Shown here piece after piece: positions 9,975 to 27,614 of a stretch of DNA of 64,000 nucleotides. The stretch is from the NCBI GenBank assembly GCA_025560025.1, contig CP048486.1, positions 1,740,001-1,804,000 on the forward strand, written 5' to 3'. Numbering within the stretch: position 1 is the stretch's first letter; every line of letters begins with the position of its first letter. Both the position numbers and the translations under genes were made by a program. A model generated the notes under the pieces. The model was given only the letters and a program-made list of their open reading frames with translations, was not told the origin of the DNA and made no database searches. Origin of the DNA: Agrobacterium tumefaciens. Lineage in GTDB: Bacteria > Pseudomonadota > Alphaproteobacteria > Rhizobiales > Rhizobiaceae.

Positions 9975-11021
9975 ATGACTGGCGGACGGGTAACCGTTAT
10001 AGATATCGCGCAGGCTGCGGGCGTGTCGAAATCGACCGTCTCGCTGGTCCTGCGGGGGTCTCCGCTCGTCAATGAGGGAACGCGGGCCAAGGTCAATGCG
10101 GCAATGCGCGAACTTGGTTATGTCTATAATCGCGGCGCTGCGAACCTGCGCCAGACCAGCGCGAAATCGAAAATCATCGGGGTCGTCGTCAATGATCTGA
10201 CGAACAGCTTTTTTGCGGAACTTGCCGTCGGCGTTGACACGGTCGTGCAATCGGCCGGCTATGTGCAATTTCTCGCCAATACCAGTGAAAGCATCGACCG
10301 GCAGCGCGAGGTGATTGCCTCGATGCGCGAGCATGGCATTTCCGGGCTGATCGTGTCGCCCGCCCGTGCGACCGATCCGCTCGATTTCAAGCCGCTGACA
10401 GCCGCCGGCATTCCCGTCGTGGTTGTTGTTCGCAGCCTGCCCGGAGCGAAAGTCTCGTCAGTGGCATCGGATAATCAGTCTGGTATGGCGCAGGCGGTGG
10501 CCCATCTCGCCTCGCTCGGCCACACCCGCATCGCCTTCATGGGTGGCTTTCCCGATACGGCGGTTTTTCACGAACGGGTCAGCGGCTTTCGGGATGCCCT
10601 GGCTGTCGCCGGTCTGACTTTTCAGGAAACGGCGGTTGTTCCCTGCGCGCCCTCGCGTGCCGGCGGTGTAGAGGCGATCGGACGCGTGCTCGAAGCAAGC
10701 GATCCGGTCACGGCCGCCGTCTGCTTCAACGACGCCGTGGCTTTTGGTGTTTGCGACGGGCTGCGCGCCCGGCAGATGGAGGCGGGGCGGGATTTCGCGG
10801 TTGTCGGCTTTGACGATGTCATTGAAGCCAAGACGACGGTGCCGGCCCTGACCACGATTGCCGTCGACCCCCAGGGGATTGGCAGGCGGGCAGCACAGCT
10901 GCTTCTCAAGCAGATCAATTCGGAGAAGGCCGATGCGGAGGCGGTGACAACGGCGGTTCGGCTCGTTGTGCGGGAGAGCTGCGGGGCAGGGCGGAATGAA
11001 GTCGGGAGGACGTTGGCATGA
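9975..11021 (+). CDS. LacI-family transcriptional regulator of the CoA/CUT1 run
   Basis: This is a 348-residue regulator. The helix-turn-helix [20 protein letters not shown] is at residues 6-25. The sensor domain shows [31 protein letters not shown] and FAVVGFDDV, the usual LacI/GalR landmarks. The ATG at 9975 is preceded by GGGAGGG; an earlier in-frame ATG at 9855 lies upstream of the promoter and is unlikely. It is the first gene of a long one-directional run and overlaps the dehydrogenase gene by four bases. The palindromes at 9750 and 9917 are its likely operators. Confidence 0.92.
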
Positions 11022-12031
11022 CGGTGCGTTGGGGATTGATCGGTGCAAGCACGATCGCCCGTGAGTGGGTGATCGGCGCAATTAGAAAAAGCGGCGGTGA
11101 GGTTGTTTCCGTTCTGAGTTCCAACCCTGCTCGCGGGGCGGAATATGCGGCGGAAAACGGCATTCCGAATGTTGCCTCGGATCTGGCGTCGCTTCTTACC
11201 GATCCGGCCATCGATGCGGTTTATATTTCGACGACGAATGATCTGCATTACGAGCAGGCGCTTGCCGCCGCCCGTGCGGGGAAACATATCCTTTGTGAAA
11301 AGCCTCTGGCCATGTCGCTTGAAGAGGCGCACGCAATGGCGGAGGCGGCGCGCAAGGCAAATGTCGTTCTGGCGACAAATCATCATCTGCGTAATGCGCC
11401 AACCCACCGTGTGATGCGCGATGCGATAGCGGCCGGCAGAATCGGAAAACCGCTGAGCGCGCGCGTTTTTCATGCGGTTTACCTGCCCCCGCATCTGCAG
11501 GGCTGGCGGCTGGACAAGCCGTCTGCGGGCGGTGGTGTCATCCTCGACATCACCGTGCACGACGTCGACACGCTTCGCTTCGTGCTGGGTGCCGATCCGG
11601 TCGAAGTCATCGCATTTTCTCAAGCCGGCGGCATGAGCCGGGAGGGACTTGAAGACGCCGTCATGGGTGTCATTCGTTTCGAAAACGGTCTTATCGCGCA
11701 GTTCCATGATGGCTTCACGACCAGATATGCCGAGACCGGTTTCGAGGTTCATGGCACCGAAGGCTCCCTGATCGCCAGAAATGTGATGACCCAGAAGTCG
11801 GTCGGCACCGTGGTGCTGCGCACCGAGGCTGGCGAGGAGGAAATCCAGGCGGGTTCCGACAATCTCTATGAGGTCGCGCTCAAAGCTTTCCACACGGCCA
11901 TCACCGGCGGCAAACCTTCAGCGACTGCTGAAGACGGCATCTGGTCGCTGGCGACCGGGCTTGCCGTCGTCGAAGCGTCAAAAAGCGGGGCCGCTGTTCG
12001 GGTCAAAACGGGAATCGAGAGCCGGTCATGA
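11018..12031 (+). CDS. Gfo/Idh/MocA-family dehydrogenase
   Basis: The protein has 337 residues with an N-terminal NAD(P)-binding region ([18 protein letters not shown]). The family motif [12 protein letters not shown] lies near residue 92, with Lys and Pro in the usual EKP form. [17 protein letters not shown] forms part of the C-terminal substrate domain. Family enzymes oxidise sugars, cyclitols or their derivatives at a ring hydroxyl. It is coupled to the LacI gene by an ATGA overlap and to the CoA-transferase gene by a four-base overlap. It probably oxidises the imported substrate or an intermediate. MocA of rhizopine catabolism is in the same family, but this gene is in a different operon from the MocDEF-like set. 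Confidence 0.88.
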
Positions 12032-25819: not shown

Positions 25820-25925
25820 TTTCGTTTTGAATTATGTCCGGGCAAGGCCCATTCATGCCTTTGACACGGCCGATCAGCACTCTATCCTCGCGCTCGCAAA
25901 GTGAAGAGTCTTTCGGGAGAGAAAA

Positions 25926-27614
25926 ATGAAGAAGCTGATCAACGATCCGTCCACCGTCGTTCGCCACATGCTGGAGGGCGTGGTGGCTCTCAGCCCGGCC
26001 AGTATTCTTCTCGCCGACGAAAACGTGGTGATACGATCTGGTCTTCCGGAAGCGGATCAGCGCAAAGTCGCGGTGCTCTCGGGCGGCGGCAGCGGTCATG
26101 AACCGGCGCATGCCGGTTATGTCGGGGCAGGTATGCTGACGGCTGCCGTGGCCGGAGACGTCTTTACGTCGCCGAGTACCGATGCCGTGCTGGCGGGGAT
26201 CAGGGCGGCTGCAGGTCCGGCGGGTGCGCTGGTCATCGTCAAGAACTATACGGGCGACCGGCTTAATTTCGGCCTCGCGGCAGAGCTTGCCCGGGCGGAA
26301 GGAATCCCCGTGGAGATCGTTGTCGTCGCCGACGATGTTGCCTTGAAAGACACCGTGCCCGTCGATCGCCGCCGCGGTATCGCCGGAACGGTCCTGGTGC
26401 ACAAGTTGGCCGGTGCTGCTGCCGAACGCGGGTTGCCGCTCGATGAAGTCGCGCGGGTGGCGCGCGCGGCGGCGGCCGGGCTTTCGTCGATGGGAATTTC
26501 GCTCGGTTCCTGCACGCTGCCGGCTGTCGGCAAGCCCGGCTTCACGCTCGGCGAGCGGGAAATCGAGGTCGGTCTCGGCATTCACGGCGAACAGGGTGTT
26601 CGCAGAATGGAGATCGCTTCGGCGGATGATCTGACGTCGCTTGTGCTCGGCACGATCGAAGCTGATGGAAAGCTCAAGGGCGGTGATCGCGTCGTGCTGC
26701 TTGTCAACGGCCTGGGTTCGACGCCTCCCATGGAGCTGTCGATTGTCGCCCGTTCAGCGCTTAACATTCTCGAGGCGAAAGGGGTGACCGTCGAACGCGC
26801 ATGGGCAGGCACCTTCCTGTCGGCGCTGGACATGCCGGGCTTTTCGCTTTCCATCATGCATGTCGATGAGCAGACGCTGGAACTCATCGACGCGGCAACC
26901 GATGCGACTGCCTGGCCACGGGGCGGGGCGGTGAACCGGCATCGCATGCTTGCCGCTTCAAAGCTGCCGGAGGGCGTTCCTTCAAATCGGGAAATGACCG
27001 CCGCAGGTGCACGTCTTCGGCAGGTGGCTGAAGATGTCGCAAAGGCCCTGATTGCCGCTGAACAACAGCTGACGGATCTCGACAGTATTACAGGTGACGG
27101 CGACCTTGGGGCCAGCATGAAGCGCGGCGCCGAAGCGATCCTCGCGCTTCCGGCTCAGGCGTTTGCGGATGTTTCGAGCGGGCTGTCGGCCATGGGCGAT
27201 GCGATGCGCAAAGCGATTGGCGGTAGCTCGGGGCCGTTCTACGCTACCGGCCTCATGCGAGCGGCCCGGCAACTCGCCGGTTCCGATGCGCCGACGGCAA
27301 GGGAGCTTGCCGATGTTTTCGTCGCCGCGGTCGAAGCGGTGTCCGAGTTAGGCGGTGCGAAGCCCGGCGACAGAACGATGGTCGATGCCCTTTATCCTGC
27401 TGCCGCCACATTCCGGGACAGGCTCGCCGATGGGCAGTCTGCCGAGGCTGCATGGAGTGAGGCCGTCGCAGCCGGTCAGGCGGGTGCCGAAGCGACGAGG
27501 ACCATGACGCCGCGCCTCGGGCGTGCGAGCTATCTTGGCGATCGTGCGAAGGGACATGCGGATGGCGGTGCCGTGGCTGTCATGATCTGGATGAGTCAGA
27601 TAGCCGCCAAATGA
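25926..27614 (+). CDS. dihydroxyacetone kinase-type kinase, DhaK and DhaL domains fused
   Basis: This 562-residue protein joins a DhaK domain to an ATP-binding DhaL domain. The DhaK part has GGGSGHEPAHAGYVGAGML at about 53-71, and His220 in GIHGEQGVRR, the residue that binds the keto substrate covalently. The DhaL part has DSITGDGDLGASMKRG near residue 380. This is the ATP-dependent single-chain form, not the PTS-dependent split form. Family members phosphorylate dihydroxyacetone, and some phosphorylate erythrulose or related ketoses. It ends the one-directional run, so it may phosphorylate a small keto sugar produced by the pathway. Confidence 0.92.
   Translation: MKKLINDPSTVVRHMLEGVVALSPASILLADENVVIRSGLPEADQRKVAVLSGGGSGHEPAHAGYVGAGMLTAAVAGDVFTSPSTDAVLAGIRAAAGPAGALVIVKNYTGDRLNFGLAAELARAEGIPVEIVVVADDVALKDTVPVDRRRGIAGTVLVHKLAGAAAERGLPLDEVARVARAAAAGLSSMGISLGSCTLPAVGKPGFTLGEREIEVGLGIHGEQGVRRMEIASADDLTSLVLGTIEADGKLKGGDRVVLLVNGLGSTPPMELSIVARSALNILEAKGVTVERAWAGTFLSALDMPGFSLSIMHVDEQTLELIDAATDATAWPRGGAVNRHRMLAASKLPEGVPSNREMTAAGARLRQVAEDVAKALIAAEQQLTDLDSITGDGDLGASMKRGAEAILALPAQAFADVSSGLSAMGDAMRKAIGGSSGPFYATGLMRAARQLAGSDAPTARELADVFVAAVEAVSELGGAKPGDRTMVDALYPAAATFRDRLADGQSAEAAWSEAVAAGQAGAEATRTMTPRLGRASYLGDRAKGHADGGAVAVMIWMSQIAAK

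What the first reader, a model, noticed from the sequence alone, without database searches (positions are those of the whole stretch)
9975..27614. 17.6 kb run coupling sugar-type uptake to CoA-thioester chemistry and multiple flavin oxidases
A LacI-controlled, one-directional run encodes a Gfo/Idh/MocA dehydrogenase, a fused CoA transferase, an enoyl-CoA hydratase, an aldehyde dehydrogenase and a CUT1 importer. Two GMC oxidoreductases, an FrdA-like flavoprotein and a DhaKL kinase follow. I know no described pathway with this set. It suggests import of a polyol- or sugar-like molecule, oxidation to a carboxylic acid, CoA activation, hydration or cleavage, and phosphorylation of a small keto sugar.
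Basis: inference. Interest (0 to 1): 0.72.

Follow-up and report, generated by a model that had tools for sequence, protein, structure and literature searches.

The report
Rhizobial operon for 1,5-anhydro-sugar breakdown
A gene run shared by many rhizobia surrounds the known enzyme 1,5-anhydrofructose reductase, and its other genes suggest an undescribed oxygen-tolerant way to break down stubborn ring-shaped sugar relatives through coenzyme-A chemistry.

Summary
The run is real and not a chance collection. LacI, Gfo/Idh, CoA transferase, enoyl-CoA hydratase, ALDH, a CUT1 importer and two GMC flavoproteins recur together in Rhizobiaceae and relatives. A LacI palindrome (up to 2 mismatches) stands before 85 of 85 related LacI genes and almost nowhere else in those loci.

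The run is best read as a 1,5-anhydrohexitol operon.

A 2025 review calls the enzyme after AFR "still unidentified" (P450-like, to mannose). No P450 turned up in 101 loci. I propose instead C6 oxidation (GMC2, ALDH), CoA activation, and beta-elimination by the hydratase, opening the ring to 2-keto-3-deoxygluconate. Stereochemistry fits: AFR's D-manno product gives exactly D-KDG, the gluco epimer does not. This mechanism is inference.

The FrdA-like gene stands beside cluster genes in 15 of 15 loci, none with the SDR. DhaKL has no syntenic support.

The parts
9749..9762 (.). LacI-type operator, upstream copy (TTGGAACGTTCCAT)
   Evidence: at least one match before LacI in 85 of 85 loci, two or more in 77
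9919..9932 (.). LacI-type operator, perfect palindrome TTGGAACGTTCCAA
9975..11021 (+). LacI-family regulator (probable autoregulated repressor of the run)
   Evidence: Pfam LacI + Peripla_BP_3
11018..12031 (+). 1,5-anhydro-D-fructose reductase (AFR) orthologue, Gfo/Idh/MocA
   Evidence: phmmer 509 bits to 4KOA, 508 to 2GLX, next 116; CEKP and LDxTVHDxD patterns in 58 of 58 loci
12028..13641 (+). fused family-I CoA transferase, YdiF/FadX type
   Evidence: 366 bits to YdiF 2AHU; the Glu motif [IV]E.G.[VI]GG in 94 of 94 loci, E328 invariant in A1
13634..14413 (+). crotonase-fold hydratase/dehydratase, proposed uronyl-CoA beta-eliminase
   Evidence: nearest solved: 3-hydroxypropionyl-CoA dehydratase 5ZAI, both Glu aligned
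14407..15942 (+). aldehyde dehydrogenase
   Evidence: Aldedh 577 bits; catalytic Cys pattern 87 of 87, Glu pattern SLELGGK 83 of 87 loci
16018..17259 (+). CUT1 solute-binding protein
   Evidence: SBP_bac_1; start chosen from the translations
17489..18367 (+). CUT1 permease 1
   Evidence: BPD_transp_1
18367..19251 (+). CUT1 permease 2
   Evidence: BPD_transp_1
19255..20370 (+). CUT1 ATPase (UgpC/MalK type)
   Evidence: ABC_tran + OB_MalK; over the UgpC subfamily cut-off
20390..21892 (+). GMC1: FAD sugar dehydrogenase type; proposed to oxidise C2 of 1,5-anhydroglucitol to anhydrofructose
   Evidence: nearest solved: FAD glucose dehydrogenase 6A2U (113.5 bits) and fructose dehydrogenase large subunit
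21988..23643 (+). GMC2: BetA/alcohol-oxidase type GMC; proposed primary-alcohol (C6) oxidation
   Evidence: PRK02106 580.6 bits, cut-off 605; nearest solved: choline dehydrogenase, then GMC oxidoreductases and alcohol oxidases
23720..25819 (+). FrdA/SdhA-superfamily flavoprotein of a distinct clade; cluster member, reaction unknown
   Evidence: beside genes of this cluster in 15 of 15 loci, none with the SDR
25926..27614 (+). DhaK-DhaL fusion kinase; neighbour, membership unproven
   Evidence: Dak1 + Dak2; not syntenic elsewhere

Best explanation
The run is an aerobic catabolic operon for 1,5-anhydrohexitols (1,5-anhydro-D-fructose, AF, and probably 1,5-anhydro-D-glucitol, AG), induced through its own LacI. 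Steps: (1) CUT1 import [architecture shown, ligand inferred]. (2) GMC1 may oxidise AG at C2 to AF [inferred]. (3) The Gfo/Idh enzyme reduces AF to 1,5-anhydro-D-mannitol, AM [strong: orthology to a characterised enzyme]. (4) GMC2 then ALDH oxidise C6 to the anhydro-uronic acid [inferred]. (5) The CoA transferase makes its CoA thioester, which acidifies H5 [inferred]. (6) The crotonase removes H5 and the C4 hydroxyl (syn, S-3-hydroxyacyl geometry), giving a 4,5-ene, an enol ether. Rehydration opens the ring to 2-keto-3-deoxy-D-gluconate (KDG) [inferred; stereochemistry fits]. (7) KDG enters the Entner-Doudoroff route, or is split to pyruvate and D-glyceraldehyde. Glycerate kinase in related clusters, or DhaKL here, would then trap the C3 unit [inferred]. 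My odds: anhydrohexitol substrate class about 0.8; steps 4-6 as drawn about 0.35-0.4. The FrdA-like enzyme is a cluster member whose reaction I cannot assign.
For: AFR identity: 509 bits to 4KOA, next family 116. The S. meliloti Ak57 gene at the same place in the same cluster matches 4KOA with a single mismatch in the 333-residue alignment. A conserved operator at the head of the run: before 85 of 85 LacI genes, two or more in 77, and nowhere else in the window's genome at one mismatch. Synteny of the CoA genes with AFR: 57 of the 82 clade loci in which the AFR slot is held. The CoA transferase keeps its Glu motif in 94 of 94 loci; the two hydratase Glu patterns are met in 94 and 87 of 96, and the nearest solved hydratase is a 3-hydroxyacyl-CoA dehydratase. 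Geometry: for D-manno and D-gluco rings C4 is the S-3-hydroxyacyl analogue and O4/H5 are on one face; D-galacto fails both. D-manno gives D-KDG and D-glyceraldehyde, D-gluco gives the L centre, which would explain why AF is reduced to AM. The genome has two KDPG/KHG-aldolase-family matches. Glycerate kinase ends the related clusters L001 and L002. A paper says SMc04396, by gene order probably this cluster's binding protein, is induced by dextrin (PMC4960864 passage). AF arises from starch and glycogen by glucan lyase (PMC12441222 passage).
Against: A review reports AF->AM->mannose by C1 hydroxylation in S. morelense; I could not read the primary paper. All 44 AFR-cluster genomes tested (of 54), and the window's own, contain P450 genes, so that route is not excluded genome-wide. 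25 of 82 clade loci with the AFR slot held lack AFR there yet keep the CoA genes, so the core may serve other sugars or several. No enzyme is assigned for CoA release. The SDR, the FrdA-like protein and the DUF993 protein have no assigned step. The hydratase Glu patterns miss in 2 and 9 of 96 loci; the misses printed are distant members. GMC1 is only 113.5 bits from its nearest solved relative, so its substrate position is a guess. No structure or substrate test was possible.
Confidence: 0.5

Rival explanations
1. AF is reduced to AM by the cluster's AFR, and AM is hydroxylated at C1 to D-mannose by an oxygenase encoded elsewhere. The CoA genes act on another substrate that shares the regulator.
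For: Published route for S. morelense as told in PMC12441222 (passages). P450 genes exist in the window's genome and in 44 of 44 AFR-cluster genomes tested.
Against: No P450 hit in any of 101 loci around the cluster, tested by tblastn (E <= 1e-10) with four P450 proteins of this genome. The hydroxylase is called 'still unidentified'. It gives no role to GMC2, ALDH, the CoA transferase or the hydratase, which stand in one run with AFR.
Confidence: 0.2
2. The core (CUT1, GMC1, GMC2, ALDH, CoA transferase, hydratase) degrades a polyol or deoxy-sugar by a beta-oxidation-like route, with hydration then retro-aldol or thiolytic cleavage to acetyl-CoA plus a C3 unit. AFR is an added-on side function.
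For: AFR is absent from its slot in 25 of 82 clade loci. The sister clusters L004-L007 have CoAT-ECH near acyl-CoA dehydrogenase and an SDR, and L004 and L007 also near electron transfer flavoprotein genes.
Against: No thiolase or lyase was recognised in the window run. The hydratase keeps the two-Glu dehydratase site, aligned to a 3-hydroxyacyl-CoA dehydratase. In the two loci where it can be judged (L022, L113), AFR is missing but a levoglucosan-dehydrogenase-like Gfo/Idh gene is present, so a Gfo/Idh enzyme may still be wanted; two loci are few.
Confidence: 0.2
3. One reading: one operon that includes DhaKL, ending in phosphorylation of dihydroxyacetone or another small keto sugar.
For: DhaKL follows on the same strand 106 bases after the FrdA-like gene. 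Triose kinases can take D-glyceraldehyde (recalled).
Against: 0 of 14 other FrdA-bearing loci have DhaKL in the stretch held. Of 247 family genomes 13 have the FrdA-like gene (E <= 1e-100) and 20 the DhaKL (E <= 1e-150); only the window's own has both. The four DhaKL neighbourhoods read lack the cluster. A promoter-like site precedes it (weak).
Confidence: 0.1

Closest known systems
1,5-anhydro-D-fructose reductase (AFR) of Sinorhizobium (PDB 2GLX, 4KOA)
   Same: The window's Gfo/Idh gene is its orthologue and lies in the same gene order as the S. meliloti Ak57 gene.
   Different: Only this one enzyme is characterised. None of my ten paper searches gave a description of the cluster around it; in the window it also carries an FrdA-like gene and lacks the SDR, glycerate kinase and DUF993 genes.
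Anaerobic 1,5-anhydroglucitol/anhydromannitol breakdown (YbiW, PflD glycyl-radical enzymes; told in PMC12441222)
   Same: Same substrates, and the ring ether must be opened.
   Different: That route is PTS- and glycyl-radical-based and oxygen-sensitive; this one has an ABC importer, flavin and NAD(P) oxidoreductases and CoA enzymes.
Alginate/uronate route: lyase, 4,5-unsaturated uronate, DEH, KDG (recalled)
   Same: Beta-elimination next to a C6 carboxyl gives an enol ether that opens to KDG from a manno ring.
   Different: There a glycan lyase acts on a polymer; here a CoA thioester and a crotonase would act on a free monomer.
pSymA-type cluster (L004, L005, L006, L007)
   Same: CoA transferase 68-70 per cent identical, hydratase, and in three of the four glycerate kinase; ALDH and GMC nearby.
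   Different: CUT2-like importer (L006 and L007 also a CUT1 set), alcohol dehydrogenase, aldo/keto reductases and acyl-CoA dehydrogenase; no AFR in the stretch held.

Membership tests
1,5-anhydro-D-fructose reductase | Closest to the characterised enzymes rather than to inositol or other Gfo/Idh dehydrogenases | tested here: met
   509 and 508 bits to 4KOA and 2GLX, next 116
1,5-anhydro-D-fructose reductase | EKP lysine and D-x-x-x-H catalytic motif | tested here: met
   CEKP and LDxTVHDxD in 58 of 58 loci; residue roles recalled
1,5-anhydro-D-fructose reductase | NADPH-dependent AF reduction to AM | not testable with these tools
   needs an enzyme assay; my NADPH-loop pattern was met in only 13 of 58 loci and was too strict to judge by
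Family-I CoA transferase (YdiF/FadX type) | Fused alpha-beta chain with the catalytic Glu | tested here: met
   full-length match to YdiF; Glu motif 94 of 94
Enoyl-CoA hydratase (two-Glu crotonase) | Both catalytic Glu residues | tested here: met
   aligned in the window with 5ZAI; patterns in 94 and 87 of 96 loci
Succinate dehydrogenase / fumarate reductase flavoprotein | Dicarboxylate-site His and Arg set | tested here: inconclusive
   Arg471 kept; the two His sites read G and Q by inspection; roles recalled, no structure
Succinate dehydrogenase / fumarate reductase flavoprotein | NCBI curated cut-off | tested here: not met
   best 115.3 bits against a cut-off of 718; 25 of 38 matching models shown, none met
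Cytochrome P450 route (AM to mannose) | A P450 gene in or near the cluster | tested here: not met
   0 of 101 loci; present elsewhere in 44 of 44 genomes tested
ATP-dependent dihydroxyacetone kinase | Dak1 and Dak2 domains in one chain | tested here: met
   over the PRK14479 subfamily cut-off, under the glycerone kinase equivalog cut-off

The most novel reading that the evidence does not exclude
Rhizobia open the ether ring of 1,5-anhydrohexitols under air by making a sugar-uronic acid CoA thioester and letting a crotonase beta-eliminate across C4-C5. A fatty-acid-type enzyme would do the job of a polysaccharide lyase and deliver D-KDG; AFR exists to set C2 so that the product is D-KDG. The flavoprotein clade now called FrdA-like would be a dedicated enzyme of this route, in place of the SDR.
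Probability: 0.33. Interest if true: 0.78.

Novelty: new variant of a known kind. Interest (0 to 1): 0.57.

Why it matters
For 1,5-anhydroglucitol (AG) a 2025 review finds no evidence of significant breakdown in mammals, and AG is the precursor of the compound that harms neutrophils in two inherited diseases. The same review says that the aerobic enzyme after AFR is unidentified and that an aerobic AG-degrading enzyme would be needed for a probiotic (PMC12441222, passages). This cluster names a small set of candidate genes for that gap and gives a mechanism with sharp isotope and stereochemical predictions. If right, it would also be a new use of CoA thioesters in sugar catabolism (judged from recall, not from a search).

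Tried and rejected
Chance gathering of genes: rejected by synteny and operator conservation.

DhaKL as a conserved part: not supported.

The upstream genes 3329-9000 (LacI-type regulator, fatty-acid-hydroxylase-family protein, binding protein, ferredoxin reductase, unassigned 284-aa protein) as the missing C1 oxygenase: at E <= 1e-20 and over half the length, none of the five has a counterpart in the 100 other loci save one 32 per cent ferredoxin reductase hit. They resemble the rhizopine mocDEF set instead (recalled; homologues of the hydroxylase-like gene are annotated beside a MocE ferredoxin).

P450 absence as a test of the mannose route: uninformative genome-wide, since all 44 genomes tested have one, as has the window's own. 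I gave 44 of the 54 AFR-bearing loci; the ten left out are L073-L075, L078-L080, L083, L084, L086 and L087. One search got 47 of the 80 loci.

Hydroxycinnamoyl-CoA-type hydratase-lyase: not favoured, the two-Glu dehydratase site is kept (the lyase's site is recalled).

Gfo2 (levoglucosan-dehydrogenase-like) as a stand-in for AFR: it occurs in 10 loci, none with AFR, but the AFR slot is held in only two of them (L022, L113), so this is not established.

Motif counts for GMC1, GMC2 and the SDR used patterns that were too strict (16 and 28 of 72; 30 and 25 of 50; 32 of 45) and say nothing. The NADPH-loop pattern for AFR was likewise met in only 13 of 58.

Literature for a published version of the cluster: ten searches. 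None listed a paper describing this gene set; the last was badly posed, because one common word filled it, and most subscription papers are not held.

Truncation: many loci end before the SDR/FrdA position. Only 16 of 45 SDR loci hold 2.5 kb or more beyond GMC2, so counts of the FrdA-like gene by locus are lower bounds; answers by whole genome.
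Full report
OBSERVATION. Five genes from LacI to ALDH overlap by a few bases and the two permeases by one; the rest follow with gaps of at most 229 bases. Terminator-like sites are no more frequent than in shuffled sequence (13 found on both strands, 16.5 expected). Two palindromes, one perfect and one with one mismatch, stand at 9749 and 9919, and with one mismatch allowed nowhere else in the genome. The window lies at C2:1740001-1804000 of a 5.68-Mb genome in four contigs.

CONSERVATION. tblastn of the Gfo/Idh protein and the CoA transferase against plasmids, one scan of named genomes (best 80 of 559 confirmed stretches kept) and unnamed family genomes gave a comparison set. 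A script on 101 loci (the window, seven annotated plasmid loci, the 80, and 13 stretches from genomes with an FrdA-like gene) found 85 loci of the same CoA-transferase clade (83 per cent identity or more). CoAT-ECH-ALDH are consecutive in 80 of 85. Of the five exceptions, L110 is only read on the other strand, L001 has a second CoA transferase first in the locus, L049 has a split hydratase hit, and L073 and L022 show no ALDH hit. AFR is present in 57 of 85; in 25 its slot is held and empty, in 3 (L010, L110, L111) the slot is cut off.

REGULATION. In 85 LacI genes (60 per cent identity or more) the 400 bases upstream hold at least one operator with at most two mismatches in 85 cases and two or more in 77. 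In the remaining 1.71 Mb of the same loci there are 4. Three of these lie about 460-495 bases upstream of the LacI match, in the spacer to the divergent DUF993 gene, and one lies before a CoA transferase. Five loci without such a LacI (L003, L115, L116, L117, L127) also hold matches. The loci are related, so this is not 85 independent tests. Still, one LacI acts at the head of the run. Whether it also drives the FrdA-like gene and DhaKL is not shown.

THE KEY IDENTITY. The Gfo/Idh protein scores 509 and 508 bits against 1,5-anhydro-D-fructose reductases 4KOA and 2GLX, and 116 against the next solved family member. 2GLX is the S. morelense enzyme (PMC5969746 passage); that 4KOA is from S. meliloti is recalled. 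The gene at the same position of the same cluster in S. meliloti Ak57 (L002) matches 4KOA with a single mismatch over 333 residues. From memory, the S. morelense enzyme was found by Kuhn et al. 2006 with the S. meliloti homologue SMc04400; I could not open that paper. The S. meliloti 1021 locus is probably SMc04389-SMc04401. That rests on gene order and on the labels SMc04390 (sorbose dehydrogenase), SMc04391 (SDR) and SMc04392 (dehydrogenase) in PMC12542648 (passage). PMC4560400 lists SMc04401 among the transcription factors with a motif (passages). PMC4960864 says SMc04396 is induced by dextrin, citing earlier work (passage). AF arises from starch and glycogen by glucan lyase in fungi and red algae (PMC12441222 passage), which would suit this.

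WHAT IS KNOWN AND OPEN. The 2025 review PMC12441222 (passages) states that Rhizobiaceae reduce AF to AM, then hydroxylate C1 with a 'still unidentified' P450-like enzyme to mannose. It also says the anaerobic AG and AM routes use glycyl-radical enzymes, and that an aerobic AG enzyme would be useful. Four P450 proteins of the window's genome find no relative at E <= 1e-10 in any of the 101 loci, although P450 genes exist elsewhere in 44 of 44 AFR-cluster genomes tested.

PROPOSED MECHANISM. GMC1 is nearest to FAD glucose and fructose dehydrogenases, GMC2 to choline dehydrogenase and alcohol oxidases. The CoA transferase is of YdiF type. The hydratase is nearest to 3-hydroxypropionyl-CoA dehydratase, with both Glu residues aligned. 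I propose C2 oxidation of AG by GMC1, reduction by AFR to AM, and C6 oxidation by GMC2 and ALDH. CoA activation, crotonase-type loss of the C4 hydroxyl with H5, and hydration of the resulting enol ether would then open the ring to KDG. A geometry script with internal controls shows that in D-gluco and D-manno rings C4 matches the S-3-hydroxyacyl sense, and O4 and H5 lie on one face. A D-galacto ring fails both. It also shows that D-manno gives exactly D-KDG and D-glyceraldehyde, while D-gluco gives the L centre at C5. This gives a reason for the reduction of AF to AM rather than to AG. It is a consistency argument, not proof. The genome has two KDPG/KHG-aldolase-family matches, one DUF993 gene in another cluster and one glycerate kinase match elsewhere.

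VARIANTS. In the annotated relatives L001 and L002, GMC1 is followed by an SDR, GMC2 and a glycerate kinase; L003 has GMC1, SDR, GMC2 with glycerate kinase upstream. Other loci have GMC1, GMC2, often a levoglucosan-dehydrogenase-like Gfo/Idh protein, and the FrdA-like gene. Over 101 loci, 45 have the SDR (50 per cent identity or more), 15 the FrdA-like gene, none both. Thirteen of the 15 hold both GMC1 and GMC2, where the SDR would lie, without it. By genome, of 47 named cluster genomes 32 have the SDR in the locus and 8 the FrdA-like gene anywhere; one (L055) has both, its FrdA-like gene lying outside the stretch held (Fisher p = 0.0007, which ignores relatedness). Eight of the 47 have neither. 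In 247 family genomes 13 have the FrdA-like gene. All 12 non-own ones were fetched, and in every one it stands beside other genes of this cluster. The window combines AFR with the FrdA-like gene, as does L016, whose copy is broken.

THE FLAVOPROTEIN. It matches succinate dehydrogenase flavoproteins only weakly (83.7 bits with a profile), and none of the 25 models shown (of 38) is met. Eleven other members are 67-79 per cent identical to it. By inspection the succinate-site Arg is kept, while two His sites read Gly and Gln (roles recalled). A search of 5.8 billion proteins gave 7150 relatives at E <= 0.001 among the 8000 candidates scored; the named ones among the 120 listed are nearly all Rhizobium. 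I cannot assign its reaction.

DHAKL. 20 of 247 family genomes have a DhaKL at E <= 1e-150. Only the window's genome has both DhaKL and the FrdA-like gene at the thresholds used. The four neighbourhoods of the closest DhaKL genes, fetched, lack the cluster. It may serve the route by phosphorylating D-glyceraldehyde, but nothing here shows it.

VERDICT. An ordinary-looking sugar operon with one characterised enzyme and an uncharacterised, chemically unusual remainder that bears on a stated open question. The substrate class is well supported; the CoA-dependent ring opening is a testable proposal.

Noticed in passing
window 3329-9000: An upstream + strand module: LacI-type regulator, fatty-acid-hydroxylase-family protein, RbsB-type binding protein, ferredoxin reductase and a 284-aa protein without Pfam match. 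It looks like a rhizopine (mocDEF-type) module; homologues of the hydroxylase-like gene are annotated beside a MocE ferredoxin. Not conserved beside AFR clusters.
   Followed up: partly
window 29958-37899: A second FrdA/SdhA-superfamily flavoprotein on the - strand, a phosphonate-binding-protein-like gene on the + strand (31625-32470) overlapping its start, and a family-5 peptide-type ABC transporter. A relative of the phosphonate-binding-like gene (84 per cent) lies at the start of L016, roughly 7 kb upstream of that locus's LacI gene.
   Followed up: no
window 17260-17488: 229-base gap between the binding protein and the first permease, with a G/C-rich inverted repeat (GGGGGCATGCCCCC) just after the binding-protein gene, perhaps for differential expression.
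   Followed up: no
L008, L029, L034, L036, L040-L042 and others: Many Rhizobium draft contigs end about 2.4-3 kb after the CoA transferase, just past ALDH, which hints at a repeat or unstable point there.
   Followed up: no
L107 (G000:C2:2026001-2046000): The window's genome has one DUF993 gene, in another cluster with a sugar isomerase-like gene, a distant Gfo/Idh match and CUT1 genes. The DUF993 family (structure 4DNH) has no paper in the library under that name.
   Followed up: partly
L004, L005, L006, L007: A sister cluster type in S. meliloti pSymA, Sagittula and Rhizobium with the same CoAT-ECH pair (glycerate kinase in three of the four, acyl-CoA dehydrogenase, CUT2-like importer): perhaps the same thioester chemistry on another sugar.
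   Followed up: partly
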